Of a stretch of DNA of 64,000 nt, positions 16,263 through 44,976 are shown in pieces; the first letter of the stretch is position 1, and each line of letters opens with the position of its first letter. The notes below the pieces were generated by a model. It did no database searches. It had not been told where the DNA came from and saw nothing but the letters and a program-made list of their open reading frames with translations. A program made the position numbers and the translations under genes. The stretch comes from Chloroflexota bacterium (lineage in GTDB: Bacteria > Chloroflexota > Anaerolineae > Aggregatilineales > J027). Location: the NCBI GenBank assembly GCA_024434115.1, contig QMIT01000007.1, positions 124,001-188,000 on the forward strand, read 5' to 3'.

Positions 16263-16396
16263 GGTGACCTCCGCTCATTACTCAATGCTGAAAACAGCAT
16301 AGACAAGGGGCATTCGGTCACTGTGGAGAATGTGTACCAAAAACGTTCGAGAAATATTCGACCAGACCCAATATTTATTTGGCGGGGGATCGTGCT

Positions 16397-19339: not shown

Positions 19340-19359
19340 TTTGTGATCGTATACCGCAA

Positions 19360-19397
19360 ACAAAGGAGCGTGCCATCCAATCTACGTGCTCCTTTGT
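19360..19397. terminator. Hairpin between convergent regulator and kinase genes
   Basis: ACAAAGGAGC and GCTCCTTTGT form a perfect 10-bp stem around an 18-nt loop, 20 nt after the BTAD stop and 54 nt before the end of the convergent kinase gene. No strong T-run, but the position suits a bidirectional terminator. Confidence 0.55.
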
Positions 19398-19450
19398 GTA
19401 TTACGCCAACTCGACCTCGAAAACGCGAGACTGGCTCGATTTCCAAATGC

Positions 19451-24457: not shown

Positions 24458-24481
24458 AAAGACCTCCAATCCAGTCAACAT

Positions 24482-24943
24482 ATGTGCGACTCTCAGTGGA
24501 AGTGCGGTGGAATACTCTTCACACTAGACTTACCCAATCACCAACACAAGTGAAATTCATCCTGATTTCTAGTGATATTCCCTCCTCTGCAACGCACAGC
24601 CTGTCAACGACAGTGATGACAAACTAACTAATGCGGGGTTTGATTATAATGACGAATTAAAAAATGTAGATACAGGGCCTTGACGAAACGCTCGGTGTAA
24701 TTGACCTGACCACTTTCCGTACCCACCGACGATGGCAATTGGTAGCAAACACATGAGCATACACCTGCAAAATTCGCTAAATTGTGAGGCAGTGTGTGAA
24801 ACTTTCACCCGAAAAATCCCGTTAGGGCTTGCGTTAGGGACAGACTTCCAGATTGTGAAACACTTTAGAAATGAAATGATGTAGGAACTTTCTGGTTTGC
24901 AAAAAGATTTGAGAATCTAATGTTTTGAGCCACATAAGAGGTA
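24482..24943. other. Intergenic region between kinase gene and tRNA-Sec
   Basis: 462 bp without a gene. It should hold the promoter of the minus-strand kinase gene and the 3' end of the selenium operon transcript. The only distinct element is the partial copy of a repeated hairpin sequence at 24796–24831. No clear intrinsic terminator for the operon was found here. Confidence 0.6.
24796..24831 (+). repeat. Partial copy of a repeated hairpin element
   Basis: The sequence from GTGAAACTTTCACCC to CCCGTTAGGGCTTG matches the second half of the 97-bp repeats at 35589 and 39096, with one mismatch in the conserved tail (ATCCC for AGCCC) and a shortened first hairpin. It holds GTGAAA/TTTCAC and CCC/GGG inverted repeats. 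Confidence 0.7.
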
Positions 24944-25037
24944 CGGGAATACATGGGAGTCGAACCCACCACGGACAGGCACGCTGCCCGTCACCGGTTT
25001 TGAAGACCGGGAAGCCCACCGGGACTCATGCACTCCC
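24944..25037 (-). tRNA. selC: tRNA-Sec (anticodon TCA)
   Basis: 94 nt on the minus strand. An 8-bp acceptor stem (GGGAGTGC with GTATTCCC, two G·U pairs), a 6-bp D stem, a CCGGT/ACCGG anticodon stem with loop CTTCAAA (anticodon TCA), a long GC-rich variable arm and a T arm with loop TTCGACT. The long acceptor and D stems and large variable arm are the marks of selenocysteine tRNA. CCA is not encoded. It lies 18 nt after the selB stop, so it is probably processed from the selA-selB transcript. Confidence 0.93.
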
Positions 25038-25055
25038 ACACTTTATTATACAAAC

Positions 25056-26924
25056 CTAGCAAGGGCTTTCCAATGCTGCCCAGTCGGGGGATTTAAGTAT
25101 ATGACCGTCTGCGGTACGCCGCGTGGCTCCCTGCGCTTCCAGATAGTCTAGGAAGGGCATCGCAATACGCCGTGATGTTGAGAAGGCATCGCGTAATTCC
25201 CCGAGATTGACAACATCGTGGGCCTCAAGTTGATGGCGCACATAACACAGCATTTCTCGATAGGTCTGCCGCAGTAGCAATACATCCGGTTTCAAAAAGA
25301 CGAGTTCACAGTCCTCGATCAACATTCGCAAGACGCTCTCATCCACATGATGGAGGGCTTCTTTATGGGATGGTGGATTGTAGGGCTGATCTTCAAACAA
25401 CGCGATGAGGTGGGCAATATTTTTTTGTTGGGCCTTTGTGATGGCAAGTCGGTGATTAGGAAGATGAATCATCCCTTTTTCTTCGCCGAAATACCCCCTA
25501 CCGATGAGAGCACGTAGGATAAGCCCATTTTCGAGATTTATCCCCAAATGATCGAGCAGTTGTTCAGGCGACATACCCCGTTTGAGAGGGTGCGTTCGAT
25601 GAAATTCGGTCAGAATCGTTTGGGCGTCATCCGCAAAGCCTTGCAGCACCGCCGGATGGATAACATGGTCTTCAATGACGATCAGATTTTCTTGTGCAAC
25701 GGCCTGATCTAACAACGCTGGATTTTTGATGTCCCGGATGGCGATAAGTGCGTTTTTTTCGTAACACGCAAACACTAATTGTTCGAGTGGCGTTCCAGTG
25801 GATCGCACCTGAAAGCGTTCTATCACAGATGCCCGATTACGTTTCCACCGCTGTGAAGATAATGCCGAAAGCACCCGTCCCCCGCCGATGGTTTCAGCGG
25901 GCGAGGGAATGCGCATCACAAAACGATCCCCATCACGTAGCGGGAGCGGGTCTTGAAATTCCAGTTGGGCAAATCCCTCATGGCCGGGTGCTAATTCATC
26001 GCTATCAAGTAGACGAACCCGTGCTAAAGAACTTCCGGGGCCGATGAAAACTTTGACGGTTTCATTGTGACGCAGTGGCCGGGTCATCTGTGGCAGACAT
26101 CGCACCACAACATCAGCCCGACTGGTTGAAGCCACCACACCCGGCAGGCTCAATACGTTGCCCCGTCGGATGTCCTGCTTGGCAATCTTGGCAAGGTTCA
26201 CCGCTACCCGACGGCCCGGCTCAACGGTTTCCATCGCCAGATTATGCGACTGCAATCCCCGGATACGGGCTTTTAAGCCATTGGGTTGAATCTCAACCTC
26301 ATCGCCAACCGCTAGTGTCCCACCAGAAAGCGTTCCCGTCACCACCGTGCCGAATCCTTGCATCGTGAAAACCCGATCTATCGGCAAAATGGGGCTGTCC
26401 AGTGTGGTACGCAGTGGACAATTCGCCAAAACATCGCGTAGGGCGTCCAACAGGGTATTTAGGCCCATTCGCTGATGCGCCGAAACAGGCACAATTGGCA
26501 CATCGGCGAAACCACAGGTGACAAGCTCCTCTTGAATCAACAGTGTCGCCAATTCAATATCATCTGCATTTTGGATGGTGTCAATTTTGGTTAGGGCCAC
26601 CACACCACGCTGCATCCCCATCAATTGCAAAATCACAAGATGCTCACGGGTTTGGGGCATAATGCCTTCATTTACATCCACCACCAGCAAAAACGCATCT
26701 AAGTTACTGACCCCTGCCAGCATATTTTCGATGAAATCTTGATGACCGGGGACATCTACAATGCCAATAATCTCACCGTCTAGTTCAATCCATGCAAACC
26801 CAAGATCAATGGTCATGGCGCGTTTTTGTTCTTCAATCAGGCGATCCGGGTGTATGCCCGACAATGCCTCAACTAAGGCCGACTTCCCATGATCTACGTG
26901 TCCGGCTGTGCAGATAACGCGCAT
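25056..26924 (-). CDS. selB: Selenocysteine-specific elongation factor SelB
   Basis: 622 residues. Begins MRVICTAGHVDHGKSALVEA, the SelB G1 motif; DVPGHQDF is G3 and ALTKID is G4. The GTPase and EF-Tu-like domains take up the first 340 residues; the C-terminal part holds winged-helix domains that bind the SECIS hairpin (SRRIAMPFLDYLEAQGATRR near the end). The frame is open 90 codons further upstream but that stretch overlaps selA in another frame; the ATG chosen has AAGGGGGTTGCTT before it and fits the 614-residue E. coli protein. It starts 11 nt after selA and is followed 18 nt later by tRNA-Sec. It delivers Sec-tRNA to UGA codons. Confidence 0.95.
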   Translation of the reverse strand: MRVICTAGHVDHGKSALVEALSGIHPDRLIEEQKRAMTIDLGFAWIELDGEIIGIVDVPGHQDFIENMLAGVSNLDAFLLVVDVNEGIMPQTREHLVILQLMGMQRGVVALTKIDTIQNADDIELATLLIQEELVTCGFADVPIVPVSAHQRMGLNTLLDALRDVLANCPLRTTLDSPILPIDRVFTMQGFGTVVTGTLSGGTLAVGDEVEIQPNGLKARIRGLQSHNLAMETVEPGRRVAVNLAKIAKQDIRRGNVLSLPGVVASTSRADVVVRCLPQMTRPLRHNETVKVFIGPGSSLARVRLLDSDELAPGHEGFAQLEFQDPLPLRDGDRFVMRIPSPAETIGGGRVLSALSSQRWKRNRASVIERFQVRSTGTPLEQLVFACYEKNALIAIRDIKNPALLDQAVAQENLIVIEDHVIHPAVLQGFADDAQTILTEFHRTHPLKRGMSPEQLLDHLGINLENGLILRALIGRGYFGEEKGMIHLPNHRLAITKAQQKNIAHLIALFEDQPYNPPSHKEALHHVDESVLRMLIEDCELVFLKPDVLLLRQTYREMLCYVRHQLEAHDVVNLGELRDAFSTSRRIAMPFLDYLEAQGATRRTADGHILKSPDWAALESPC

Positions 26925-26935
26925 AAGCAACCCCC

Positions 26936-28309
26936 TTAATTCAACAATTGGCGCAGCGCCGCTGTAACGATTTCGATTTGAGATGGCAGGATCGTGCGCG
27001 GGTCGAGTACCAATTGACTTTCGGTGACACGGGCAATAATGGGGATGTCGTAGCCACGCAGAGCGATTTGGCCCTGTGCGTCGGACGCAACGGGAACAAC
27101 ATAAAGGGCTGTCGGTAGGGTATGTCCCGGTAAACTCCCCCCACCAACCACCGATTCGCCATCTACAATCGAGCCTCCAAACAACGTGACCCACTGCTCT
27201 GCAATCTGCCGAATCTGTGGCAGCGGTATCGCTATCATTGACCAGATCGGAATATGGGTGGTCGCATTGCCGCGCCGATAATGATCAAGCGTAGCGGCTA
27301 GGGCCGCAATGGTCATTTTATCTACCCGCAAAGCCCGTGCCAGAGGGTGTTCTTTGAGCCGATCCAACACCGCTTTTTTGCCGACGATAATTCCGGCTTG
27401 CGGCCCGCCTAGCAATTTGTCACCGCTGAATAAAACAACATCCGCCCCAGCCGCAAGGCTTTCTTGAACGGTTGGCTCATGCTCTAGTCCATAGACGGAG
27501 GTATCCAACAACGCGCCGCTGCCAAGATCGTCAATACATAAAAGATTGTGTTGATGCGCCAGTGTTGCTAATTCACTTAAGGGGACACACTCGGTAAAGC
27601 CGATAATACGAAAATTTGAGGGATGGACTTGCATCAGCATCGCAGTTTCGTTAGTGATGGCCCATTCATAATCGGTCAGGTGTGTGCGGTTGGTAGTTCC
27701 CACTTCCACCAATTTGACCCCACTTTGCAGCATGACATCCGGCATCCGAAACCCGCCACCAATCTCAACCAACTGCCCCCGACTGATGACGGCTTCTTGA
27801 CCATTTGCCAAGGCACTCAGCGTCAGCATCACCCCGGCAGCATTATTATTGACCACCATCGCGGATTCGGCCCCAATAACCTCGCTAACTAAATCCTCAA
27901 TATGCTGCTGGCGTTTCCCGCGTGTGCCTGTTTCCAAATCAAATTCCAGATTGCTATAACTTCCTGCAACCTGCTGCACCGCCTCTAGTGCTGCTTTGGA
28001 TAGTGGGGCACGCCCCAAATTGGTATGCAAAATCACGCCTGTCGCATTAATAACAGGCCATAGCGAAAGCTGAAATCTCTCGACAAGGTTTTGGCTAATC
28101 TGTTGAATCAGAGCATCCATCGAACTAGGGTCAAATTTCTCATTCTGTAGATGGGAGCGCACCTCTTGAAGTACATGCCGCACTTCAGTCAAAACAGTTT
28201 CACGACCATACACCTCGATTAAAAGTTGGATGGCCGATTCTTCCAATAGGCAGTTTACGGAAGGCAAATCGCGGAAGGTGAGGATAGGGATCGTTTTGTC
28301 ATGGGTCAT
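26936..28309 (-). CDS. selA: L-seryl-tRNA(Sec) selenium transferase SelA
   Basis: 457 residues, the usual SelA length. PLP-dependent fold-type I enzyme that converts Ser-tRNA(Sec) to Sec-tRNA(Sec) using selenophosphate. Family motifs: VINATGVILHTNLGRAP, SNLEFDLETGTRGKR, the VNNNAAGVML cofactor loop, DDLGSG, and the PLP lysine in FSGDKLLGGPQAG. Lies 39 nt after the NrfD-type gene and 11 nt before selB on the same strand, so it appears part of the cytochrome/ferredoxin/NrfD operon. Selenophosphate synthetase (selD) is not in the window. Confidence 0.96.
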   Translation of the reverse strand: MTHDKTIPILTFRDLPSVNCLLEESAIQLLIEVYGRETVLTEVRHVLQEVRSHLQNEKFDPSSMDALIQQISQNLVERFQLSLWPVINATGVILHTNLGRAPLSKAALEAVQQVAGSYSNLEFDLETGTRGKRQQHIEDLVSEVIGAESAMVVNNNAAGVMLTLSALANGQEAVISRGQLVEIGGGFRMPDVMLQSGVKLVEVGTTNRTHLTDYEWAITNETAMLMQVHPSNFRIIGFTECVPLSELATLAHQHNLLCIDDLGSGALLDTSVYGLEHEPTVQESLAAGADVVLFSGDKLLGGPQAGIIVGKKAVLDRLKEHPLARALRVDKMTIAALAATLDHYRRGNATTHIPIWSMIAIPLPQIRQIAEQWVTLFGGSIVDGESVVGGGSLPGHTLPTALYVVPVASDAQGQIALRGYDIPIIARVTESQLVLDPRTILPSQIEIVTAALRQLLN

Positions 28310-28348
28310 TGTTTTCTACTTTCCTACGCTCGATATGACTCCGCGCTG

Positions 28349-29584
28349 TCAGTGATCGTTATGCGGGAACATGGGCAGGAAGCGCAGTCCTAATGTGAGA
28401 GCCATCAACCCATAACCCAATACACCGACACCAACGCCCCATTCTGTCCAGTTGGGCCGATAGCTGTTGACGTGCAAGACCTCCGCCACCCCCGGCGACC
28501 AATCCAGCGGGACGATTAAGCCCGAAAGGGTTACATTCCAGCGATTCACTACAACACCAATGACCGCCAGCAGTGCCGCCGCCACAATCCACTTATCTTG
28601 TGCCCGTAGTTGCGGCGTTAGGAGGATAATGGCGGGAACAAGGCCACCCAGTAGCACTTCAATAATCCAAAAGGAACTGCCATAGGGGGCGATACGATTT
28701 AACAGATCCAAATCTTCTACCCGCGAGGGCAAGTGGCTGTAGTAGCTAGTCGCCAAGAAATCCCATAATTTCAAATAGAGATAGGCCAGCATGGTCAACC
28801 CAGCTAACATGGCGAGTTGCCGCCGCAGCTTGTCACTGATTTGACGTGTCCGAACGAGATTTTCATAGAAAATGGTCACGCCGAGTGTAAAGGTCACTCC
28901 CGCCGCGACTGCCGACAAAATAAACATGACCGGTAGCGATGGCTTAAACCAAATAGGCCGTGCCACCAAAACCCCATAGGTCGCCCCCAGCGAAGATTGA
29001 TGCAAAAGAGACAGCCCCAGCCCGATAATCGCTGCCAGAGGAGTGAATTGATGGATCACATGCCCAATACGGGGCGCTTTGGGGTAACGCTTGCTGATGA
29101 TTTTGCTTTCCATCAGGATTGGCGCGAATTCCACCACCAATACCGTCGAATACAAAATCACGCACATCGTGACTTCCCACAGGACGGAGTGGATATTCCA
29201 ATAGAGAACCGGGTGCCAAAACCGATCTGGACGACCAATATCCATTGCAAGGGCCAGCATCGCCGACGTATAGCCGACCAGCCCTACGAAAACCGCCATG
29301 CGGGCAATTTTTCGGAAGGACTCTACCCGCAGCAAATAAGCAACAGCGGATAGCGAAAATGCCCCTGCGCCAAGTGCGATGGCCGATAAATCCACCGTAA
29401 TCCATAATCCCCACGGGACTTGATTGGTAAGATTGGTAACTTCCAGCCCATGCCATAAGACCGAGGCCGCGCTTATAACCCCGATGGTCAGCAGGCCAAG
29501 CAGAAATCCTATCCACAGCCGGAAAACGGAGTGGGTACCGCTGACAGGCTGCTCAGTCGAGGTGGGGGCCGTAATCGTGGTCAT
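28349..29584 (-). CDS. NrfD/PsrC-family membrane subunit
   Basis: 411 residues with about nine to ten hydrophobic helices and no cofactor-binding Cys/His pattern, as in NrfD, PsrC and HybB quinone-reactive subunits. Opening FRLWIGFLLGLLTIGVISAA and later GRPDRFWHPVLYWNIHSVLWE are typical of the family. Its ATG overlaps the stop of the ferredoxin gene (ATGA), so the two are translationally coupled. With the exported ferredoxin and the octaheme cytochrome it should form a membrane complex moving electrons between the quinone pool and extracytoplasmic cytochromes. Direction and final partner are not shown by sequence. Confidence 0.88.
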   Translation of the reverse strand: MTTITAPTSTEQPVSGTHSVFRLWIGFLLGLLTIGVISAASVLWHGLEVTNLTNQVPWGLWITVDLSAIALGAGAFSLSAVAYLLRVESFRKIARMAVFVGLVGYTSAMLALAMDIGRPDRFWHPVLYWNIHSVLWEVTMCVILYSTVLVVEFAPILMESKIISKRYPKAPRIGHVIHQFTPLAAIIGLGLSLLHQSSLGATYGVLVARPIWFKPSLPVMFILSAVAAGVTFTLGVTIFYENLVRTRQISDKLRRQLAMLAGLTMLAYLYLKLWDFLATSYYSHLPSRVEDLDLLNRIAPYGSSFWIIEVLLGGLVPAIILLTPQLRAQDKWIVAAALLAVIGVVVNRWNVTLSGLIVPLDWSPGVAEVLHVNSYRPNWTEWGVGVGVLGYGLMALTLGLRFLPMFPHNDH

Positions 29585-30420
29585 AGCACCATCCCTTCCG
29601 GTGGAATGTAATATACATTAGGTTCGGTGCCGAGTTCCTCACGCAACCGGAAAGTTGGATGACTGGCGATGACCTGCGAAATCGGGCTAGTCGGGTCATT
29701 TAGATCACCAAAAACCCGCGCCTTGACCGGACAAATATTGACACAGGCGGGGGTGGCAGCACGGTCAATGCCGGGGATTAAGCCCAACGGAATACCCCGG
29801 TCAATCCGGTGTACACAGAAGGTGCATTTTTCAACAACCCCACGTGGACGACGCTCAACTTCCGCGCTACCCCATGCTTCTTGATAGCCACTGGCACGGG
29901 TACGTTTTTCCCAGTTAAAGCTGCGTGCGCCATAGGGACAGGCCACCTGACAATAGCGGCAGCCAATGCACACGTCATAATCCATCATCACGATGCCATC
30001 GTCGCGGACGTAGGTCGCTTGCACCGGACAAACCGCCACACACGGCGCATCTTGACAGTGCAGGCACGGGCGAGTCATGTGGAAAACTTCATCCGATTCG
30101 GTTTTATCCAGCAGATACACATTCCAACGCATATCATCGGGGACATCATTCACCGCTTGGCAGGCATACACACAATATTTGCAGCCAATACATTTGCTTA
30201 AATCTATGACCATGCCCCAACGATGTTTGCCTTTGGCGTGGGATTTTTCTTCTAGCGGGCCTTCCTGTAGGTCAATCGCCAATTCCTGCTGGATGAGGTC
30301 GTTCAAAGAGTCGAAGTCACTTAGGACAGCCGCAACCCCAAGACTGGCCCCCAAGCCTGTCAGCATCGTGATGAACTCACGGCGGGTGATGAATTTGTCT
30401 CCGGTGGGCGGCTTATTCAT
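29581..30420 (-). CDS. Tat-exported 4x[4Fe-4S] ferredoxin subunit (NrfC/PsrB-like)
   Basis: 279 residues. N-terminus ITRREFITMLTGLGASLG is a Tat signal (twin Arg, hydrophobic core), placing the protein outside the cytoplasmic membrane. Four cluster motifs: CIGCKYCVYAC, CLHCQDAPCVAVCP, CIGCRYCQVACPYG, and CTFCVHRIDRG with ACVNICP. The end LGTEPNVYYIP is common in TtrB/PsrB-type subunits. The start overlaps the cytochrome gene by 8 nt and its end overlaps the NrfD gene by 4 nt. It wires the cytochrome to the NrfD subunit. No molybdopterin catalytic subunit is adjacent, so this looks like an electron-transfer module rather than a complete Psr reductase. Confidence 0.93.
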   Translation of the reverse strand: MNKPPTGDKFITRREFITMLTGLGASLGVAAVLSDFDSLNDLIQQELAIDLQEGPLEEKSHAKGKHRWGMVIDLSKCIGCKYCVYACQAVNDVPDDMRWNVYLLDKTESDEVFHMTRPCLHCQDAPCVAVCPVQATYVRDDGIVMMDYDVCIGCRYCQVACPYGARSFNWEKRTRASGYQEAWGSAEVERRPRGVVEKCTFCVHRIDRGIPLGLIPGIDRAATPACVNICPVKARVFGDLNDPTSPISQVIASHPTFRLREELGTEPNVYYIPPEGMVL

Positions 30421-31429
30421 GGCGATCCTCGCGCTTCCAATCCAGCCATTTTTGGAGACGGGTCAGCACCAGCGTTGCTAAGACACCAAGCGCCCCGCCC
30501 ACAATGAGGCCTTGCATCAAGTGGGCTGCTGCCGAGTTTTCACCCTGAGCGCGTACTTCTGAGACCTGCGCTTCTAATTCTTCAATTTCGATCTTGGCCT
30601 CACCAAGGCTGACTGCGACACTGACGGGTTCAGGTGGAGTACCGTCAACCATCGTAGTTGGATTAGCGGCAAGTTCGGCATGGCAGGTGTTACAGGTTGC
30701 GGTGGTGACGTTCGCGTCATGTCCGGTGGGGAGCAGCACCCCGGTCAACAAATGCTCAGAATTATCGCTTGTCCCGCCATGCCAGTGACAATTGGTACAC
30801 GCTTCTTCGGGATGGGAGGCGTGCGCAAACGATTCCGCGTTATAGTCGGCCACATGACAATTTAAACATAGTTCGGAAGAGGTCTCAAAGCGCAGGGTTT
30901 GCGGATGTGGATTATGACAGGCCGTGCAAGCCAACTGCTGATCGCCATGTCCACTGCGCCGCCATTCCTGATAGGTTGCGATATGGCACGTCGTACAAAC
31001 CTCAATCCCCGGCTCAACCATCACGGCCTCATCATCAGGATGATTGGGAGGCGTTGTCCCATGACAGGCTTCACAAGTTACCCCGGCATGTTGATATTCA
31101 CCCGTCGCCACCGAAAATGCTGTAGTATGGCAGGTCAAACAATTCGGGTCTTGGCTCACATTGCTCCAAGCCGATTGAAACCCGTCACCCTGAAAAGCAA
31201 GGGCATGGGAGCTTGTTTGCCAATTCGCCGCCACATCTATATGACATTCCGCACAATCTTGTGGAATTAGGGTGGGTTCTAAGGTTGCAGTAGTCGGGGT
31301 GGCGACAGGAGTTCCGCCATCTTGGGCATACACTTGATAGCTAAAAAGAACCCCTATCCCCATCATAAAAAGAATAAGGCTAATGGCTCGAAGAAAAGAC
31401 CCTCTTTTTGAACTCATAGGCGGGTGCAA
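30413..31429 (-). CDS. Octaheme c-type cytochrome with C-terminal membrane anchor
   Basis: 338 residues. Signal peptide in the first 35 residues (ISLILFMMGIGVLFSYQVYAQDG). Eight CxxCH motifs: CAEC, CLTC, CEAC, CTTC, CTAC, CLNC, CTNC and CNTC, each followed by H. A short coiled-coil-like stretch (EIEELEAQVSEVRAQ) precedes a C-terminal membrane helix (LIVGGALGVLATLVL) and a charged tail. The frame opens with TTG at 31429, preceded by GAGAGG; ATG at 31417 is the alternative. First gene of the operon continuing to the ferredoxin, NrfD, selA, selB and tRNA-Sec. Probable role: electron exchange between the membrane complex and soluble or surface cytochromes such as the one encoded divergently. Confidence 0.88.
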   Translation of the reverse strand: MHPPMSSKRGSFLRAISLILFMMGIGVLFSYQVYAQDGGTPVATPTTATLEPTLIPQDCAECHIDVAANWQTSSHALAFQGDGFQSAWSNVSQDPNCLTCHTTAFSVATGEYQHAGVTCEACHGTTPPNHPDDEAVMVEPGIEVCTTCHIATYQEWRRSGHGDQQLACTACHNPHPQTLRFETSSELCLNCHVADYNAESFAHASHPEEACTNCHWHGGTSDNSEHLLTGVLLPTGHDANVTTATCNTCHAELAANPTTMVDGTPPEPVSVAVSLGEAKIEIEELEAQVSEVRAQGENSAAAHLMQGLIVGGALGVLATLVLTRLQKWLDWKREDRHE

Positions 31430-31533
31430 AATTACACATCCTCTCTAAAATCGGCGGATTATGTAAAACCGTAAAGATGTACCCCCATACGATGAGCCGC
31501 ACTACTGACTCAATCTAACCCATTCACGCTCCT

Positions 31534-31548
31534 ATTCCATAGTGGAAT
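31534..31548. promoter_or_regulatory. Palindrome in the divergent promoter region
   Basis: ATTCCA-TAG-TGGAAT is a perfect 6-bp inverted repeat in the 244-bp spacer between the two divergent cytochrome genes. A dimeric regulator site is possible; no regulator is known. Confidence 0.35.
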
Positions 31549-31562
31549 CTGGTGTGGTTTAT

Positions 31563-31580
31563 TCGTGACAAAAATCACTA
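31563..31580. promoter_or_regulatory. CRP/FNR-type operator candidate
   Basis: TCGTGA-N6-TCACTA, where the half-sites GTGA and TCAC are 6 bp apart exactly as in the CRP/FNR superfamily consensus TGTGA-N6-TCACA. It sits 94 bp before the plus-strand cytochrome start and about 135 bp before the minus-strand one, so one site could serve both divergent operons. Anaerobic regulators of this superfamily often control cytochrome and reductase genes; which one acts here is not known. Confidence 0.5.
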
Positions 31581-31673
31581 TCGCGCTTCACGAGAATTTG
31601 TTCTGATTATTAGGTGAAATTTGCTTTTTGCTTAAACAATCTATCCTCAGGGGAGGAGAGATAAATACCTCAG

Positions 31674-33362
31674 ATGCGTTCAATAGCAGGATCAATTCTC
31701 CTCATGGGTTTGTTCTTGGTCATGAGTGCTTTGGTGGCGAGTTGCGCCCCCGACAAAAGCGCCCCCGAACTAGAAATAGGTCAAGCGCCAACAGTTGGGG
31801 CGGAGGATGTACTCATTACGGATGCGGGCATCACGGCGGAGGAAATGGTAGCGGAAATTGAGCCATTTACCGATGTCGAATGTTTAGACTGCCACACTGA
31901 TGAAGTTGCCCTTCAAGAGCTTGCCAAACCAGAAGAGACAACCGAAAGCCTGTCCACAGGCCCGGGGTGAGGTGGCTCCGTGGCTCCGATGGAGCCATGG
32001 CAGCGCGTCTGGATTGACGCCAACACCTTCACAACCGATATTCATTCACTGATTAACTGTACAGACTGTCATCAGGGCCAATCTGTAGAAGATATGGATG
32101 TGGCGCACACCGACATGGTCGTCAGGCCGACTGATCAGGCCGATGTCACCTGTGCCAAGTGCCACCCCGCTATCACCGCCGCTGCCGCGAATTCCCTTCA
32201 CAACACCCTTGCTGGCTACGATACGGTGCTGCATGAGCGCAGTATCCCGGAAAATCATCTTGTGCTCGAAGAGATGGAGTCCTATCACTGCGATTCCTGC
32301 CATGCGAGTTGTGGTGATTGTCACGTCAGCCAACCCACCTCCGTTGGTGGCGGGTTCTTACAAGGCCATACCTTCCTTGAAGAACCGACCATGAGCCGCA
32401 ATTGCACCGCGTGTCATGGCAGTCGTGTCAAAGATGAATATTATGGCGCTCATGAAGAAATCCCCAGTGACGTACATTTCCGGGGTCGGATGGCTTGTAA
32501 TGATTGTCACACCGGCCAAGAAATGCACGGCATTACAACTGCCGACGCCGCCCATCGTTATGATGGCGCACAAGGGCCATCCTGTGAATCCTGCCACCAA
32601 GCCGAAATCGGTGCTGGCTCTGGCATTTTGCAGCATGAAATTCATGGCACCGAATCTATCGCCTGCCAAGTGTGCCACAGCGTCAGCTACACCAACTGCT
32701 CAAACTGCCACGTCGAACGCAATGAAGAAAATACACCGTTTTTCTCCGTCGAGGAAAACTGGCTGGGGTTTTATATCGCCCGCAATGAACTGCGAAACAG
32801 TGATCGCCCCTATGAATATGTTACTGTCCGGCATGTGCCAATTGATGAGAACTCGTTCAGCTTCTATGGCGAAAACCTACTGCCGAATTTTAACAATCGT
32901 TCGACATGGGCCTATACCACACCACACAATACCCAGCGCATTACGCCGCAGACCCAAAGCTGTAAATCATGTCATGGCAATGATGCCATCTTTTTGACAG
33001 CCGATAAGGTGGCCCCGGAGGAATTGGAGGCCAACACTAGCATTATTGTGCCTGCCGCGCCGCCACTACCTGAAGGCTACGAGGATGTCATCACGGGTGA
33101 AGCGACACCTACCCAAACACCTGCAAGCCATGAGGGTGATTTTTGGGGGGACGGTTCATCCGAGACCCAACCTACCGAACCCACTGATGGGGACTTCTGG
33201 GGGGACTCCGGCGCGACAACCCCTACGCCCGAAGGAGATTTTTGGGGTGGAGAGGCAGAACCCGCCACCCAACCCACTGAAGAAAGCAGTTTTTGGGGTT
33301 CGGATAACACGACCAATCAAGCGACCCCTTCGAATGAGGGTGGCTCATTTTGGGACAATTGA
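31674..33362 (+). CDS. Undecaheme c-type cytochrome lipoprotein, predicted selenoprotein (in-frame UGA = Sec99)
   Basis: One frame of 562 residues interrupted only by TGA at 31968, codon 99. The N-terminal part has a lipoprotein signal (hydrophobic core, LVASC lipobox, Cys24) and one heme site (CLDCH at 70). Downstream of the UGA, in the same frame, are ten more CxxCH motifs (CTDC, CAKC, CDSC, CGDC, CTAC, CNDC, CESC, CQVC, CSNC, CKSC). Without readthrough the last ten hemes would have no export signal and could not be matured. A hairpin fitting the bacterial SECIS pattern follows the UGA, and selA, selB and tRNA-Sec lie on the other strand nearby. A GTG at 31980 preceded by GAGGTG is a possible restart but gives a leaderless product. 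The C-terminal 110 residues are a Thr/Pro-rich tail with repeated DFWG blocks. The ribosome site GGGGAGGAGAG is 13–18 nt before the ATG. Alternative: a recent nonsense mutation. Confidence 0.8.
31968..32000 (+). promoter_or_regulatory. UGA selenocysteine codon with bacterial SECIS-like hairpin
   Basis: TGA at 31968–31970. CCGTGGCTCC (31978–31987) and GGAGCCATGG (31991–32000) form a 10-bp stem with one G·U pair and loop GAT. The loop starts with G and lies 17 nt after the UGA, within the spacing reported for bacterial SECIS elements (roughly 16–37 nt, a G at the start of the loop). GTGGCTCC is tandemly duplicated just before, so a second register with an 11-nt loop is possible. The predicted residue context is STGPG-Sec-GGSVAPMEPW. 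Confidence 0.7.
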
Positions 33363-33385
33363 GTACATATCAAAAAGGAATCTAT

Positions 33386-35011
33386 ATGAAAAAACTAACC
33401 CTCCTTATCCTTGTTGCTGTGATGGCGCTCATGTGGACGCCCGTCTTGGCACAGTCCGATTCTGTCAAGGCGGCCCTTGAAGCCTATAACCAAAACCTAC
33501 CGGAAGGCTATGGCACCATCTCGGCTGAAGACGTAGGTACGGCCCTCATCGAACGTACCCCGGTATTGCTGGACGTGCGGGAAGCTAATGAATATGCCGA
33601 AGGCCATATCGAAGGCTCATTTAATGTGCCAATTCGTGAATTGGGTAAGAATTTGAATTTGCTGCCCGATCTCAATGCCGAAATTATCGTCATCTGCAAA
33701 GGTGGCGGACGTGCGATGTTGGCTCAATCCTCTTTAAACGTCCTCGGCTATGTCAATGCCAAGACGATGAAGGGCGGCTTTAGTGCTTGGGTTGGCGAAG
33801 AATTTCCCGTTTCGACAGAACCCTTTGTACCCGAAGCTGGCACTGCCCCAGAATTTGACGCTGACGTTTTGGCCGCCGTTGATGGTTATCTCAGTTCGCT
33901 ACCCGAAGGCTATGGCCTTGTGGGTGTGGTGGCCCTCGCCGAAGAACTGGCTGAAAAAGAACTGGTTTTGATTGATGTTCGCAGCGAAACCGAATGGAAC
34001 GAACAGGGCTATATTGCAGGGGCGCAGCACATTTGGATTGATGAGTTTATGGCTCATCAAGATATGTGGCCTGCCGACAAGAATACCGAAATCGTGATCT
34101 ATTGTGCCAGCAGTTATCGCGGTGGTATCGCCATGACCATGCTCAAACTTATGGGTTATGCCAATGTCCGTAATGTGACGGGCGGGTTTAATGCGTGGGT
34201 TGCGGAGGGGCTGCCCTTTGAAGGCGGAATACCTGCCGCCGAGTTCGACCTACAAACCTATTTGACCGACTATGTTGCCGGACTGCCTGAAAATTATAAT
34301 GCCCTGCGTGTAGCCGATCTCGAAGCAGAAATGGCAGCGGGTGGTGATCTGTTCTTGCTCGATGTACGCTCTCCCGATGAATATGCCGAAGGCCATATCG
34401 AAGGTGCGGTGAATGTTCCCATTGAAACCGTTGCGGACAATCTGGCACTGCTGCCCACTCTGGATGCGAATATCGTGGTCTACTGCGGCAGTGGACACCG
34501 TTCCGCGATTGTGATGGAAGTCCTCAATCTGTTGGGCTATACCAATGTACGCAGTCTGTTGGGCGGCACCAAGGCTTGGATGACATCTGAATTACCCGTC
34601 ACTGATGTTCCCACCACTGTTGAACCCGGCACAATGCCAGCCGTGAATGCCGACGTACTCCCACTCGTCGCTGAATATCTCACCAACCTGCCCGCCGGAT
34701 ATTATACGGTTAAGGCGGAAGATTTGAGCGCCGAACTTGCCGAGAGTCCTATTGTTCTGATTGACCTTCGTACCGATGGTGAATATGCGGAGGGCTTCAT
34801 TGAAGGGGCGCTACACATCCCATTGGCCGACTTTATGACCCGTCTTAGCGAAGTGCCAACTACCGGGCCAGTTGTCCTCTATGATAATCCAACCCACCGC
34901 AGCACTATGGCGATGGTCATGCTGCAACTGCTGGGCCATACCGACATTCGTGTCTTAGCGGGTGGTTCCGGTGCATGGGCGAGTGCTGGACTACCATTCG
35001 TCACGGAATAA
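33386..35011 (+). CDS. Exported protein with four rhodanese domains
   Basis: 541 residues from ATG with AAAAAGGAA upstream; a TTG start inside the cytochrome gene is unlikely. Signal peptide MKKLTLLILVAVMALMW…VLAQ. Four tandem rhodanese modules of about 125 residues, each opened by a LPEGY/LPENY/LPAGY motif and a LLDVR or LIDLR strand. The active-site Cys is present in the first three (VICKGGGRA, IYCASSYRG, VYCGSGHRS) but is Asp in the fourth (LYDNPTHRS), so that one is probably non-catalytic. It follows the Sec-cytochrome by 23 nt and ends in a strong terminator, forming a two-gene operon. Rhodaneses move sulfane sulfur (or can carry selenium), pointing to sulfur or selenium compounds as partners of the cytochrome system. 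Confidence 0.93.
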   Translation: MKKLTLLILVAVMALMWTPVLAQSDSVKAALEAYNQNLPEGYGTISAEDVGTALIERTPVLLDVREANEYAEGHIEGSFNVPIRELGKNLNLLPDLNAEIIVICKGGGRAMLAQSSLNVLGYVNAKTMKGGFSAWVGEEFPVSTEPFVPEAGTAPEFDADVLAAVDGYLSSLPEGYGLVGVVALAEELAEKELVLIDVRSETEWNEQGYIAGAQHIWIDEFMAHQDMWPADKNTEIVIYCASSYRGGIAMTMLKLMGYANVRNVTGGFNAWVAEGLPFEGGIPAAEFDLQTYLTDYVAGLPENYNALRVADLEAEMAAGGDLFLLDVRSPDEYAEGHIEGAVNVPIETVADNLALLPTLDANIVVYCGSGHRSAIVMEVLNLLGYTNVRSLLGGTKAWMTSELPVTDVPTTVEPGTMPAVNADVLPLVAEYLTNLPAGYYTVKAEDLSAELAESPIVLIDLRTDGEYAEGFIEGALHIPLADFMTRLSEVPTTGPVVLYDNPTHRSTMAMVMLQLLGHTDIRVLAGGSGAWASAGLPFVTE

Positions 35012-35058
35012 ATTGGAATACATGGGTTCAACAGAATCCAGTAAAAAACGAATTTATA

Positions 35059-35088
35059 AAGGCTATCTGAAATCAGATGGCCTTTTTT
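35059..35088 (+). terminator. Rho-independent terminator of the Sec-cytochrome/rhodanese operon
   Basis: AAGGCTATCTGA and TCAGATGGCCTT form a 12-bp stem with one wobble and a two-base loop, followed by TTTTTT, 48 nt after the rhodanese stop. Confidence 0.9.
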
Positions 35089-35108
35089 CTGCAACTCAAA
35101 TCTGATGA

Positions 35109-35537
35109 TTAACCGTTATTTGGGTGAGTAGTTGGCAACGTAAACGTAAATGTCACAGAGTCCTCTGAGACTTCGACTTCCAGTGACCCGCCGTGCAGGG
35201 CAATGATTTCGCGGCTCATGGCTAATCCTAACTCACTGCCACCACTGTCCCGTTCACGAGCGGCTTCGGCACGCCAGAACGGTTGGAACACCCGTTTTGC
35301 ATCGGTATCACTAAGCCGACTGCCTGTATTGCTCACGCTGAAACGCCCCCTAGGCCCAGCCGCCACTTGAAGGGAGATTTCGCCCTCAGGGGTATGGCGC
35401 AGGGCATTGGTGAGCAAATTGGATAATACTTGACGTATGCGGGTCACATCGGCCTTTACTGATGGGAGATGGGAAGCAATTGTACAGGTGAGACGAATAT
35501 TGCTATCAAGCACAAGGGGTTCAAAGCCTTCTATCAT
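35109..35537 (-). pseudogene. 3' remnant of a sensor histidine kinase
   Basis: 142 codons containing only the HATPase_c part: N box VLSNLLTNALRHTPEG, a G1-like region (SVSNTGSRLSD) and SELGLAMSREIIALHGG as G2. Homology seems to continue a few codons upstream of the first ATG (to about 35560), where a stop appears. The dimerisation domain with the phospho-His, and any sensor region, are missing. The break lies next to the 97-bp repeat at 35589, consistent with truncation by the neighbouring insertion. The missing 5' part was not found on the other side of the element. Confidence 0.75.
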
Positions 35538-35926: not shown

Positions 35927-36945
35927 TTGCCCAAATTGCAACTAGCCTTCGATCTATACTCAACAGGCAGTTACAGTGACAGAGACATTGCCCGTGAGTT
36001 AAATGTGCGTGACTATAACTCCAAAACAGGCCGCCCATTTGACGCAGATTGTGTACGGGCGATTCTGCAAAATCGTACCTATCTTGGATTCGTCAAATAT
36101 CAGCAATATGACCCGCATTCAGACGGACCGCGATCATGGAAAAACCCTATCGAGTGGATCAAAGGGAAACACGATCCAATCATTGACGAGGAACTCTTTA
36201 ATCGCTGTCAAGAGATCCGTTACGCCAAAGCACAACACCACGAGTATTACCCAAAATATCGGTTCTATTTACTACGAGATGTTATCTACTGTGCCGAATG
36301 TGTTGCCAATATGCCAGACAATGTGGATGGTGATGCTTGGGGTAAGATGCGTTGTCAATCCTCTACTCAGGGGCGTAACCTTTACTATCGGTGTCGCGCT
36401 CGTGATTTTGGACGGGAATGCAGCCAAACTTATATTCGTGCGGAAAACGTAGAAGAACAGGTGATAAACATCCTAAAGAGTCTCAAACCACCGACTGACT
36501 GGCGGGACCGCATGATAGAAGCTATGGGCGAATTATTGGGGGACAATAACCTTAATGAACGCCTCACCGAAATCAAACAAGTGATAGAGCACATGGATTT
36601 TCGCTGGGATAATGGCTTCATCACAGAAAAAGATGAGTACCTTGAGCAGCGGGTGAAACTCCAACAGGAGCTAGAAAAGTTAACACCAATTCCTGAAGAC
36701 GAACTACGAATTGCCGCAGATGTTTTAGAGAATTTCGAGGCTCACTGGGACGCAACCAAAGGCGACCGAAAAGCACAGCAAGATTTGATTAATCTGATTG
36801 TGGCAAGAGTGTGGGTGAAAGATGGGGATGTGGTCGCAATGTCACTGAGACCCAATTACCACATCACAGTAGGCTTAGAAAACACAAAATCCACCGAACT
36901 CAGCTTGGATACGGTGGATTCTCCGTTGTTACACAGGCGGAAGCG
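35927..36945 (+). pseudogene. Truncated large serine recombinase lacking its catalytic domain
   Basis: The frame starts directly in the recombinase domain (LQLAFDLYSTGSYSDRDIARELN), followed by the DNA-binding part (AILQNRTYLGFVKY), a zinc-ribbon Cys pair (VIYCAECVANM, then CRARDFGRECSQT) and a coiled-coil region (about 200–300). The N-terminal resolvase domain with the catalytic serine is absent; an in-frame TGA lies at 35909, just upstream. The 3' end runs into the opposite-strand recombinase gene; similarity to the fragment at 39359 ends near DSPLLHRRK, about 36945, although the frame stays open to 37216. Not catalytically competent. Confidence 0.8.
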
Positions 36946-38651
36946 ACGGGTTCATGGTTGGATTCAGCCATCATTTCTACCTCAATACCCACGTCAGAAC
37001 CTATTGTATCACTTTTTGGTTCAGCAACCATCTGGTTTCTTTCAAAAGAGTCTTGGGTATGGAAAAAGTGGCCTCCTCCATCTGGGCCACCCGTCAGATC
37101 ATCAGGGTCAGGACGCTCAGGTAATCGGCAAACGTCCATCAGCACCTTCAAAAATGGTTTCGGTTCTATCGCCACCACCGGCCCACGCTTCCCGCTATCA
37201 AGATATACCGTTGTAAGTAACGCATGAAAAATATCTTCAAGCTCATCGGGTGTGGCTTGTTCAAGAAGCTCGCCTATGTTTTCCAGCATTAATGCTGCCG
37301 ACTCGAGATCAGGATCCTCCACTGGTCGGAGGGCGGCTAACTTGGCCGTAAGGTCAGTCCGGGCTTGTAGATATTCCGCTTCCCGCATATCTCCCATCAA
37401 ATAGAGTTTTTTCGAGCGTTCCAGTTGATTTTCAAGGCGCTGTCGTTTGGCTTCCAAATCGTTTCGTTCCTCTGAAGTGAGTCCTTGTGAGAGAATCCGC
37501 TCCCGCCAATCCTGTGGCAGGCGAATCCCAGATAAATATTGAACCACGGCTTGTTCGGCTTTCTCAGCTTGAACTTGGAGTTGGGTACAGGTGTGGTTAG
37601 AGCGACGTGGATCACGATAGTAACGACGATCCTGCCAATTCGGCTGACCGCGCATGGGTTTTTGACACCGCGCACAGATCACGAGTCCCGAAAGAGGATA
37701 AACTCGTTTGGTTGATTTAGCACGGACCGTTCGTCCACGCCGTTGGGCACGAATCGCTTGACACTGCTCAAATAGGCTTTCTGGAATGAGTGCAGGATGC
37801 CGCCCTTCAATCCACTCGCCTTGGGACTGTACTTTGCCCAGATAGAAGGGGTTTTTGAGCATGGGTCGCACCGTATCCCCTTCGAATAATCGTTCTCCCC
37901 AGTTCCCGGTGGTACGATAACCGGCTTCGTTCAGTGCAATCGCAATCCCATGATCCGAAATATTGCCATGTGCATAGAGGCTGAACGCCAGTTGAACCCC
38001 TTCAGCATTCTTGGGATGAGGCACAGCATCAGCATCCGTGCGGTCTGACCATTGATCTAGGTACCGCTCCAGCCTTTCTACCTGCTCGGAATATACGGCT
38101 TGCGGTAACACCCCCGACTCAAATTGCTCCGCTAATTTCCAGATTTGGCTCTTCAGCTGCTTGATGCTGATATAACCAAAGGACAGACTGCCATTCCAAT
38201 AACCGGCCCGTGCGCGGGCTGCTTTGCCTTTGGCGCTCTCCCGTGCACGGTTCTGGTTGTCCCATTGGGCCAAGAGCGCAAAGAGGTACAACATGAACTC
38301 CCCCTGTGGTGTGGTCGTATCCAACCAAGGCTCCGCCACCGACACTAAGCCCACTTTGGCTTCTTTCAGGCGGGCCACATTTCGGACGACATCGGCAAGG
38401 CTACGGCTGAACCGATCCAATTTGTGCACCACGATCACATCAAAGCGCTTGAGTTCAGCATCCCGCATCATGCGTTGGAATACAGGTCGCATGTCGGTTT
38501 TAGCGGAACGACCCGGCTCCAGATAGCCGGGTTCCATGTATTGCCATCCTCGTCGTTGGAGCAAGCCGACGCATTCGTCCTGCTGAGCATCCAAACTCCA
38601 CCCTTCAGTCTGCTCTTCCGTGGAAACTCGGGTGTAAATCGCCGCACGCAT
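36900..38651 (-). CDS. Large serine recombinase (site-specific integrase/transposase)
   Basis: 583 residues. Intact resolvase domain: AAIYTRVSTEEQ with nucleophile Ser10, then FDVIVVHKLDRFSRS with the catalytic arginines. Recombinase domain from about 150 (VQLAFSLYAHGNISDHGIAIALNEAG), zinc-ribbon Cys pairs (LVICARCQKPM … SNHTCTQLQ) and a C-terminal coiled coil (about 400–480). The start ATG shares its A with the stop of the 59-residue gene (TGATG), indicating coupled translation; a TTG one codon earlier is the alternative. Large serine recombinases integrate and excise phages and conjugative elements between short attachment sites. The C-terminal ~100 codons overlap the opposite-strand remnant and may be non-homologous tail. 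Confidence 0.92.
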   Translation of the reverse strand: MRAAIYTRVSTEEQTEGWSLDAQQDECVGLLQRRGWQYMEPGYLEPGRSAKTDMRPVFQRMMRDAELKRFDVIVVHKLDRFSRSLADVVRNVARLKEAKVGLVSVAEPWLDTTTPQGEFMLYLFALLAQWDNQNRARESAKGKAARARAGYWNGSLSFGYISIKQLKSQIWKLAEQFESGVLPQAVYSEQVERLERYLDQWSDRTDADAVPHPKNAEGVQLAFSLYAHGNISDHGIAIALNEAGYRTTGNWGERLFEGDTVRPMLKNPFYLGKVQSQGEWIEGRHPALIPESLFEQCQAIRAQRRGRTVRAKSTKRVYPLSGLVICARCQKPMRGQPNWQDRRYYRDPRRSNHTCTQLQVQAEKAEQAVVQYLSGIRLPQDWRERILSQGLTSEERNDLEAKRQRLENQLERSKKLYLMGDMREAEYLQARTDLTAKLAALRPVEDPDLESAALMLENIGELLEQATPDELEDIFHALLTTVYLDSGKRGPVVAIEPKPFLKVLMDVCRLPERPDPDDLTGGPDGGGHFFHTQDSFERNQMVAEPKSDTIGSDVGIEVEMMAESNHEPVASACVTTENPPYPS

Positions 38652-38830
38652 CAAGACTCCTCCTCATATTTCAAATCTTCAGATGGTTCGATACTTGCAT
38701 TATCCTCTGTGGAAGCACCCTGACCAAACAGGCGAGCAATGATGCGGGTGAGTACATCCAGAAAGGGCGAGGCCTCAATGAGGAGTTCCAAGTCGTCTTC
38801 TTGGGTTTCCGGGGTTGCGTGGTGGTTCAT
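38651..38830 (-). CDS. 59-residue acidic protein in recombinase cassette
   Basis: Begins MNHHATPETQEDDLELLIEA and ends in EDLKYEEES; strongly acidic with a central hydrophobic helix (FLDVLTRIIARLFG). Its ATG overlaps the stop of the RHH gene (ATGA) and its stop overlaps the recombinase start (TGATG), so the three are translated as one unit. This arrangement is the main evidence that it is real. It may be a recombination directionality factor or DNA-mimic partner, but that is speculation; no family is recognised. Confidence 0.7.
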   Translation of the reverse strand: MNHHATPETQEDDLELLIEASPFLDVLTRIIARLFGQGASTEDNASIEPSEDLKYEEES

Positions 38831-39577: not shown

Positions 39578-39623
39578 CCATACTCATGCCATCAAAGTTC
39601 TATCTTACGAACACGATATTGCC

Positions 39624-42290: not shown

Positions 42291-42361
42291 GCCTCGCTAA
42301 AAGGTACTAGCTTATCTAGGCCCTAGTTTAGCAGTATTATTTGTTCATTCACGCTTGAAAC

Positions 42362-44404: not shown

Positions 44405-44427
44405 CGTTTGTGATCCCTTTGGGGTGT

Positions 44428-44739
44428 TTAATGTGAAAGATCACTCAATTTTGAATCTTCGAGCGCCTCCTGATTCAAAGTTGCCTCATGCCGCTGTACC
44501 CAGCGCAAGATTGTCCTGTAGTAGAGTAGAACTAAGCCAACTTCCAAAATTTTCGTCGTACTGCTGCTGGTGATTAAGGACGGGATGGCGAATAGGGCGA
44601 TAAGGGAAATGGCCGTCAGCACATAAACCTGCCACCAAGGAGAGGCTTGATGGGATTTCTGCTTGATGGACGACTGTTGGTTGTTTTTTCGTCGCGAAAT
44701 CGAGATTAGTGCTTCATAGAGATCTTCATAAATAGCCAT
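44428..44739 (-). CDS. Small two-helix membrane protein in kdp operon
   Basis: 103 residues. Charged N-terminus, then two hydrophobic segments (VYVLTAISLIALFAIPSLI and ILEVGLVLLYYRTIL). ATG preceded by AAGGAGCCACTT at ideal spacing. First gene before the KimA-like permease and kdpD. It resembles CAAD- or YdaO-associated small membrane proteins only in general form; function unknown. Confidence 0.65.
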   Translation of the reverse strand: MAIYEDLYEALISISRRKNNQQSSIKQKSHQASPWWQVYVLTAISLIALFAIPSLITSSSTTKILEVGLVLLYYRTILRWVQRHEATLNQEALEDSKLSDLSH

Positions 44740-44855
44740 AAGTGGCTCCTTACATCATGCAACTGGCATACTCCGCGCATGTATCTAAATCAAAATTCAC
44801 TGCTTGCTAGTGTAGAAAATTCGGAGTCAAAAAGGTGGCAAGAATCAGCTGATAA

Positions 44856-44874
44856 GCATCAAGAAAGCATCAAG
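44856..44874. promoter_or_regulatory. Phased direct repeat, putative KdpE box
   Basis: GCATCAAGAAAGCATCAAGG holds ATCAAG twice, exactly 11 bp apart (44858 and 44869), in the spacer between the divergent small-membrane-protein operon and kdpE. The reverse complement (CTTGATGCTTTCTTGATGC) matches the repeats at 45671–45720. OmpR-family regulators bind such helical-pitch repeats. Confidence 0.45.
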
Positions 44875-44976
44875 GCTTTTCCGAGGGCTTTGGTTTGCGC
44901 TACTATGGAGACAATTGGCGATAAGGTGAAGTTTCAAATGCATCGGGTTGAAAGTAGCCTCTCGAGGGAAATTAGC

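What the first reader, a model, noticed from the sequence alone, without database searches (positions are those of the whole stretch)
31674..33362. Undecaheme cytochrome c with an in-frame UGA: predicted selenocysteine cytochrome
A single reading frame carries a lipoprotein signal and one heme motif, then TGA at codon 99, then ten more heme motifs and the tail. The downstream part alone has no signal peptide, so it could not be exported and receive heme. A hairpin fitting the bacterial SECIS pattern (10-bp stem, G-first loop, 17 nt from the UGA) follows, and selA, selB and tRNA-Sec are about 3–7 kb away in the divergent operon. A selenol between heme 1 and heme 2 (GPG-Sec-GGSVAPMEPW) could be a heme ligand, a redox partner or a substrate-binding residue. 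I know of no well-described selenoprotein of this type.
Basis: partly seen in the sequence, partly recalled or inferred. Interest (0 to 1): 0.95.

Follow-up and report, generated by a model that had tools for sequence, protein, structure and literature searches.

The report
Selenocysteine multiheme cytochrome paired with rhodanese
This gene from a Chloroflexota bacterium encodes an eleven-heme cytochrome interrupted by a UGA codon that nearly all relatives examined keep and that is predicted to be read as selenocysteine; in every such relative with enough sequence around it, a sulfur-transfer (rhodanese) gene lies beside it, so it likely couples selenium chemistry on sulfur compounds to respiration.

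Summary
Confirmed and extended. Window 31674-33362 is one frame: lipoprotein signal, heme motif 1, TGA (codon 99), heme motifs 2-11. The UGA is a trait of a cytochrome family found mostly in class Anaerolineae: 75 of 80 fetched regions carry it, in a G-x-G-Sec-[G/A] loop. The hairpin behind it covaries across 72 distinct sequences. Members seen without UGA have Trp, Leu, His, Val or Gln there; no Cys form was seen.

Selenoprotein multiheme cytochromes are known (Geobacter ExtKL); this is a family I found listed nowhere, with a strict rhodanese partner. Likely a menaquinone-linked sulfane-sulfur oxidoreductase. Sec insertion is near certain by inference; mechanism and direction are untested.

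The parts
31674..33362 (+). Undecaheme c-type cytochrome lipoprotein gene with in-frame UGA (Sec-MHC)
   Evidence: homologues
31743..31745 (+). Lipobox Cys24 (LVAS-C)
   Evidence: sequence
31881..31895 (+). Heme motif 1 (CLDCH, residues 70-74), upstream of the UGA
   Evidence: invariant in the 16-row alignment
31968..31970 (+). UGA codon 99, predicted selenocysteine, in GPG-Sec-GG
   Evidence: UGA in 75 of 80 fetched regions
31978..32000 (+). SECIS-type hairpin, 10 bp here, loop GAT; inner 8 pairs tested family-wide
   Evidence: covariation score reached by 0 of 500 shuffles; slid controls far lower
32058..32975 (+). Heme motifs 2-11 (residues 129-434)
   Evidence: Pfam Cytochrome_C7 and Cytochrom_c3_2
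33386..35011 (+). Exported-looking protein of four rhodanese domains; three keep the C-x4-R loop, the fourth has Asp in place of Cys
   Evidence: adjacency
30413..31429 (-). Multiheme cytochrome with C-terminal membrane helix (likely electron-transfer partner)
29581..30420 (-). Multi-cluster Fe-S protein, DsrO/QrcC type
   Evidence: DsrO NF045797 217.9 bits, cut-off 200
28349..29584 (-). NrfD/QrcD-type membrane quinone subunit
   Evidence: PF03916 119.8 bits; QrcD 302 bits, below its cut-off of 570
26936..28309 (-). selA
   Evidence: TIGR00474 566 bits, cut-off 267.9
25056..27194 (-). selB (open frame given; GTPase domain begins at residue 91, so the real start is probably near 26930)
   Evidence: TIGR00475 317.4 bits, cut-off 242.25
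24944..25037 (-). tRNA-Sec (selC), anticodon TCA
24941..35098 (.). Discrete block selC-selB-selA-nrfD-feS-cyt / Sec-MHC-rhodanese with its terminator-like hairpin; the same block lies at another site in a congener
35927..38654 (.). Two serine-recombinase genes (35927-37216 plus, 36900-38654 minus) beside the block

Best explanation
The gene at 31674-33362 is an eleven-heme lipoprotein cytochrome whose conserved in-frame UGA is predicted to be translated as selenocysteine, and the protein likely works with the rhodanese encoded beside it as a menaquinone-linked sulfane-sulfur oxidoreductase outside the cell membrane. SHOWN by calls: one frame with a single UGA; UGA conserved over the family; covarying hairpin at a fixed distance; selA, selB and tRNA-Sec in the same block; rhodanese adjacent in every UGA locus whose contig reaches far enough, and not found in three lineages that lost the UGA (a fourth shows none in the 1.35 kb held upstream); no Cys form seen. 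INFERRED: SelB and the hairpin direct Sec insertion; the Gly-rich loop presents the selenol as a mobile arm; the rhodanese, charged by thiosulfate or polysulfide, hands its sulfane sulfur to the selenol as a Se-S bond; the hemes act as a wire that reduces (or oxidises) this bond, exchanging electrons with menaquinone through the NrfD/Fe-S/multiheme module or, in another clade, cytochrome b561 plus multiheme cytochromes. Direction is open: I favour reduction to sulfide at about 55:45. Partial confidences: Sec insertion 0.96; working partnership with the rhodanese in sulfur transfer 0.67 (lowered from 0.7 on re-check, as one of the four losses is cut by a contig edge); Sec as the sulfur-handling residue wired to the hemes 0.5.
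For: UGA kept in 75 of 80 regions and in three loci of two genomes from other classes of the phylum. Hairpin: 91.1% of cells pair against 43.6-54.7% in slid controls; covariation 0.221 against 0.074 in shuffles, reached by 0 of 500. Same block as selA/B/C; the three congeners without the cytochrome also lack selA. Rhodanese adjacent in 70 of 76, the other six at contig edges; L111, L127 and G120, all non-UGA, show none within the 3.5 to 10 kb held on each side. Fold nearest to tetrathionate reductase 1sp3. Otr-like octaheme gene in the same operon in one clade. No formate dehydrogenase alpha over the cut-off in the own genome, so the block's Sec machinery has no user of that kind there; other selenoproteins were not sought.
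Against: G037 (95% complete) carries the UGA gene with no selA found, as do two less complete genomes, G006 and G008. Four sampled genomes and seven database proteins keep the multiheme frame without Sec, so Sec is not needed for every role. Only three (four with L126) independent pairs bear on Sec and rhodanese; the sign test cannot go below p = 0.25 (0.125). Two of the five covariation measures are not unusual. Rhodanese adjacency does not prove direct transfer. AlphaFold confidence in the Sec loop is low (pLDDT under 50 at residues 100-105; 86-104), so no Sec-heme distance can be claimed. Substrate, direction and Se content are untested.
Confidence: 0.6

Rival explanations
1. Sec cytochrome for selenite/tellurite or metal reduction, like Geobacter ExtKL in the extHIJKL cluster, where the rhodanese handles selenium rather than sulfur.
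For: ExtKL is a proposed Sec cytochrome in a cluster with a rhodanese (ExtH); loss of the porin ExtI of that cluster impaired selenite/tellurite reduction (PMC5877670, passages). Low-scoring ExtM profile match, 24.6 bits against a cut-off of 800.
Against: No ExtKL (NF040886) match at E up to 10. No porin among the window neighbours searched by domain. Heme layout differs (1+10 here; five hemes before the Sec part in ExtKL). Fold points to a tetrathionate-reductase-like protein.
Confidence: 0.2
2. Sec99 is the distal ligand of a heme (a selenolate heme), tuning its potential or forming a catalytic site as Cys does in TsdA or SoxA (recalled comparison).
For: Eleven heme motifs but ten non-motif His conserved in at least 85% of 81 rows, so one heme may lack a family-wide His ligand; no Cys replacement seen.
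Against: Further His (294, 324) and a 95% conserved Met273 are available; most heme motifs persist in non-Sec members; the Sec loop is Gly-rich and of low model confidence.
Confidence: 0.15
3. UGA is a true stop: termination-reinitiation makes an N-terminal monoheme lipoprotein and a separate decaheme protein from the GTG/TTG just downstream.
For: A GTG or TTG codon is the fourth codon after the UGA in most of the 72 sequences; gene callers start there (P0005, P0009, P0013, P0111).
Against: The downstream product lacks a leader and could not receive heme c outside the membrane; the codons between UGA and this start are protein-conserved ([G/A][G/A]x); covarying hairpin and sel genes fit Sec decoding.
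Confidence: 0.02
4. Electron-transfer cytochrome in which Sec is a redox switch or protects against oxidants, with no sulfur-transfer catalysis.
For: About 4 kDa of polypeptide per heme in the core (408 residues, 11 hemes, my estimate) falls in the class that PMC7096707 calls electron-transfer proteins (passages).
Against: Does not explain the strict rhodanese adjacency and the missing rhodanese in non-Sec members.
Confidence: 0.13

Closest known systems
ExtKL, Geobacter selenoprotein multiheme cytochrome (NF040886; GSU2937-2936)
   Same: UGA-containing c-type cytochrome; a rhodanese gene (extH) in the cluster.
   Different: No profile match; five hemes before the Sec part against one before and ten after; porin and bc-like partners against NrfD/Fe-S or cytochrome b561. 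No ExtKL sequence was compared directly.
Octaheme tetrathionate reductase Otr (PDB 1sp3; TIGR04315), including its Sec variant
   Different: 11 against 8 hemes; below the TIGR04315 cut-off; the Sec does not align with the NNFC Cys; the tail and the GxG-Sec loop are not seen in the Otr alignment.
Qrc / DsrMKJOP / NrfD-type menaquinone modules
   Same: Neighbour Fe-S protein passes the DsrO cut-off; the membrane subunit is nearest QrcD.
   Different: No molybdoprotein-like QrcB/PsrA subunit among the window neighbours searched by domain; its place appears taken by the Sec cytochrome and the rhodanese.
NF041203 and TsoB, rhodanese-related selenoproteins
   Same: Rhodanese/selenium theme; the window rhodanese scores 135 bits on NF041203 (cut-off 115).
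   Different: Here the Sec is in the cytochrome; the window rhodanese frame holds no UGA.

Membership tests
Bacterial selenoproteins | In-frame UGA conserved among homologues with coding sequence kept on both sides | tested here: met
   75 of 80 regions; heme 1 and the flanking motif conserved
Bacterial selenoproteins | SECIS hairpin directly downstream with G in the apical loop | tested here: met
   G at loop position 1 in 70 of 72 sequences
Bacterial selenoproteins | SelA, SelB, SelD and tRNA-Sec in the genome | tested here: met
   for this genome; selA found in 22 of 25 genomes with the gene among 61, two of these below the cut-off as fragments
Bacterial selenoproteins | Cys homologues at the Sec position (usual, not required) | tested here: not met
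   none seen; non-Sec forms have Trp, Leu, His, Val or Gln
Bacterial selenoproteins | Selenium in the purified protein | not testable with these tools
   needs mass spectrometry or 75Se labelling
ExtKL (NF040886) | Match to the NCBIfam model | tested here: not met
   no match at E up to 10, (HMMER filters drop most matches above about 0.1)
ExtKL (NF040886) | Pentaheme N-terminal part followed by the Sec part | tested here: not met
   one heme before and ten after the UGA; ExtKL layout from PMC1914089 passages
Otr (TIGR04315) | Score above the curated cut-off of 375 bits | tested here: not met
   no match for the window protein at E up to 10; one family member (G185) matched at 22 bits
Otr (TIGR04315) | Fold of 1sp3 | tested here: inconclusive
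Otr (TIGR04315) | Invariant NNFC Cys between hemes 1 and 2 | tested here: not met
   A4 shows NNFC invariant in 13 rows; this family has GxG-Sec in the same segment, not aligned residue to residue
Rhodanese (neighbour, PF00581) | Rhodanese domains with active-site Cys loop | tested here: met
   four stretches, 270.8 bits; Cys loop in three of four domains

The most novel reading that the evidence does not exclude
A respiratory sulfur enzyme in which one selenocysteine, not a heme or molybdenum, is the sulfur-handling site: a dedicated rhodanese loads sulfane sulfur onto the selenol, an eleven-heme wire exchanges electrons with it, and Cys cannot stand in. The enzyme moves between genomes together with its own Sec-decoding genes as a self-sufficient cassette.
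Probability: 0.35. Interest if true: 0.93.

Novelty: new variant of a known kind. Interest (0 to 1): 0.8.

Why it matters
Published screens usually recognise selenoproteins by Cys homologues (PMC13188914, passages); here none was seen, which points to chemistry that needs selenium. The family occurs in many families of Anaerolineae (77 of 396 genomes sampled), and the database proteins looked at (four of four that come from UGA genes) begin after the UGA, so annotation misses the signal peptide, first heme and Sec. It links selenium directly to a heme wire and to sulfur transfer, makes a testable case for a rhodanese-to-Sec-to-heme path, and shows Sec decoding genes in one mobile block with one user gene. 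Aggregatilinea lenta, a named Anaerolineae species, appears to carry it, so it could be tested.

Tried and rejected
Whole-PDB sequence search gave one hit (28pb, E 2.7e-05 over 71 profile positions), not followed; Foldseek gave nothing significant, and only the VIA re-alignment pointed to 1sp3. hhalign against the Otr family gave 99%, but repeated CXXCH motifs inflate such scores and no control with an unrelated multiheme family was run, so I did not file the family under Otr. A frameshift or sequencing error was rejected: the UGA recurs in independent assemblies. Reinitiation was rejected (see rivals). The phylum search matched 13 of 400 genomes, ten of them the own genome and others of the same class; of the other three, two have UGA and one partial non-UGA hit (G452) was not followed. 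Several rows list further stops; some lie beyond the gene's own end, not all were examined. Literature: search listings; passages; no paper was read whole. Within these searches and the NCBIfam scans I found no description of this family; the library lacks most subscription papers. Other phyla were not searched by genome. No coordinates of the AlphaFold models are available, so Sec-heme distances were not measured. L128 (position beyond the contig end) and L146 (distant partial relative) could not be scored; two rows (L128 and the second copy in L110) were dropped before the change count, and contig-edge loci before the pair tests. On re-check I found that L126, first counted among the losses of both Sec and rhodanese, has only 1.35 kb upstream and would be unscored by the rule used for UGA loci; the report now gives both counts.

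Full report
Observation. The frame 31674-33362 encodes a lipoprotein-type leader with lipobox Cys24, CXXCH motif 1, a TGA at codon 99 and ten more CXXCH motifs. The own genome (5.28 Mb, 22 contigs) holds one copy.

The UGA is a family trait. Of 61 genomes (own plus 60 relatives) 26 matched the protein, one of them (G059) only weakly; of 396 genomes of the class 77 matched the family profile. I fetched regions from 80 of the 96 genomes so matched. 75 of 80 carry UGA in the loop G-x-G-Sec-[G/A]-[G/A]. The other five are Leu (L111), His (L126), Val (L127), one cut off before the position (L128) and one distant partial relative (L146). A further genome, G120, has Trp. Three loci from two genomes of other classes have UGA. 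On a tree of 83 rows, 77 Sec and 4 non-Sec rows need four changes. Among the 120 proteins listed in each, seven are full-length without a stop; at the aligned place they have Trp (4), Leu, Val and Gln, none Cys.

SECIS. In 72 distinct sequences the stem columns 13-20/24-31 counted from the UGA form standard pairs in 91.1% of cells against 43.6-54.7% in slid controls; 33 cells have double changes; the covariation score was reached by 0 of 500 shuffles. The measure 'pairs with a change on both sides' was not unusual (3; 218 of 500 shuffles), nor were further pair types (8; 80 of 500). The outer two pairs are weak. Pair 16-28 swaps C-G (50) for G-C (20), which at protein level swaps Ala104...Pro108 for Pro104...Ala108: RNA pairing appears to dictate the residues.

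Sec machinery. tRNA-Sec, selB and selA lie on the minus strand of the divergent cluster, selD elsewhere. Among the 61 genomes, selA was found in 22 of 25 with the cytochrome, two of these below the cut-off as fragments, and in 21 of 36 without (weak G059 counted as without; Fisher p 0.02, not corrected for kinship). The exceptions are G006 (81% complete), G008 (69%) and G037 (95%). Three congeners (G001, G002, G004; 96-97% complete) lack both. Of four non-UGA genomes, G120, G108 and G313 still have selA and G164 does not. No formate dehydrogenase alpha over the cut-off was found in the own genome.

A mobile block. Window 24941-35098, from the end of tRNA-Sec to a terminator-like hairpin after the rhodanese, matches G003 contig C271 at 90-91% with different neighbours. 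The two stretches that flank the block in the window (15429-24662 and 39619-45665) lie 0.2 kb apart on G003 contig C21 without it, the right one inverted. Window 35.1-39.6 kb, with the recombinases, is mostly absent there too. G003 is a large fragmented assembly (7.6 Mb, 370 contigs), so caution is due. Serine recombinases sit beside the block in the window. selA, selB or tRNA-Sec also lies near the cytochrome in L067 (G003 itself), L069, L074, L078, L084 and L086.

Rhodanese partner. A rhodanese gene is adjacent in 70 of 76 UGA loci (37 downstream, 32 upstream, 1 both); the other six stop at a contig edge. L111, L126, L127 and L128 show none by tblastn; ten neighbouring proteins of L111, L126 and L127 contain no rhodanese domain. 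In G120 the Fe-S, NrfD and cytochrome genes remain and no rhodanese is found, whereas its congener G087 (L096) has UGA and rhodanese. Sequence held around the position: L111 10.3 kb up and 3.5 down, L127 9.0 and 5.2, G120 7.5 and 7.5, but L126 only 1.35 kb up (6.6 down); the rhodanese of its relative L123 spans 0.49-1.58 kb upstream, so most but not all of such a gene would be in view. With L126 counted, 75 rows agree throughout (71 both, 4 neither) and four of four independent pairs go together, p 0.125; with L126 left out by the edge rule used for UGA loci, 74 rows (71 and 3) and three of three pairs, p 0.25. In both tests loci not at contig edges were entered as rhodanese-positive, and the window's own. 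These p values are the floors for so few pairs.

Membrane partners. In the order of the window the cytochrome/Fe-S/NrfD genes are usually divergent (tblastn hits in 34, 37 and 30 of 81 loci of all orders; the Fe-S hits include distant ones). In another clade the operon is rhodanese, Sec-MHC, nonaheme, cytochrome b561, Otr-like octaheme (Otr-like hits in 15 or 18 UGA loci by query, nonaheme and b561 in 19 each; L120).

Mechanism (inference). Menaquinone module, heme wire, selenol on a Gly-rich arm, sulfane sulfur from the rhodanese. The low mass per heme (about 4 kDa for the 408-residue core, my estimate) fits a wire by the rule quoted in PMC7096707 (passages), which moves the chemistry to Sec and rhodanese. 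Direction is unknown.

Known context. The 2026 review PMC13188914 (passages) lists ExtKL, a GSU2204-family protein and a Sec form of TIGR04315 among its selenoprotein families. ExtKL lies in a cluster with a rhodanese and is proposed for selenite reduction (PMC5877670, passages). The present protein matches no NCBIfam model above cut-off.

Testability. P0085 is named Aggregatilinea lenta by its source and its longest contig has the length of the contig behind L086 of G052 (907116), so G052 is probably that species, placed in Anaerolineae; that it is in culture is recalled.

Noticed in passing
L156 (genome G214, contig C603:6005-7366): An octaheme tetrathionate-reductase family gene with in-frame UGA exactly at the otherwise invariant NNFC Cys; the letters after it can form a 7-bp hairpin with a GGC loop (read by eye): a second Sec multiheme cytochrome in the class.
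   Followed up: partly
window 31980-31998 and family columns 16/28: Ala104/Pro108 and Pro104/Ala108 exchange together across the family because the codons pair in the SECIS stem.
   Followed up: yes
window 33118-33359: C-terminal tail with repeated (D/G)xFWG-like motifs in low-complexity sequence, kept in many members; role unknown.
   Followed up: no
L106, L112, L118: By their letters, heavy-metal P-type ATPase genes, in places with regulator-like small genes, lie downstream of the Sec cytochrome on the other strand; not confirmed by a domain search.
   Followed up: no
L097:10634-11782 and L104: A gene with a VKOR domain and a thioredoxin-like CGHC motif diverges from the Sec cytochrome.
   Followed up: no
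window 19451-24481: 1676-aa protein kinase/nSTAND1/WD40 protein with many relatives in each congener.
   Followed up: no
window 35109-35537: Remnant of a histidine kinase (ATPase domain only) between the block and the recombinases; its DNA recurs beside the flank region in G003.
   Followed up: no
G037 contig C29 (L082): UGA cytochrome in a 95% complete genome with no selA found.
   Followed up: partly
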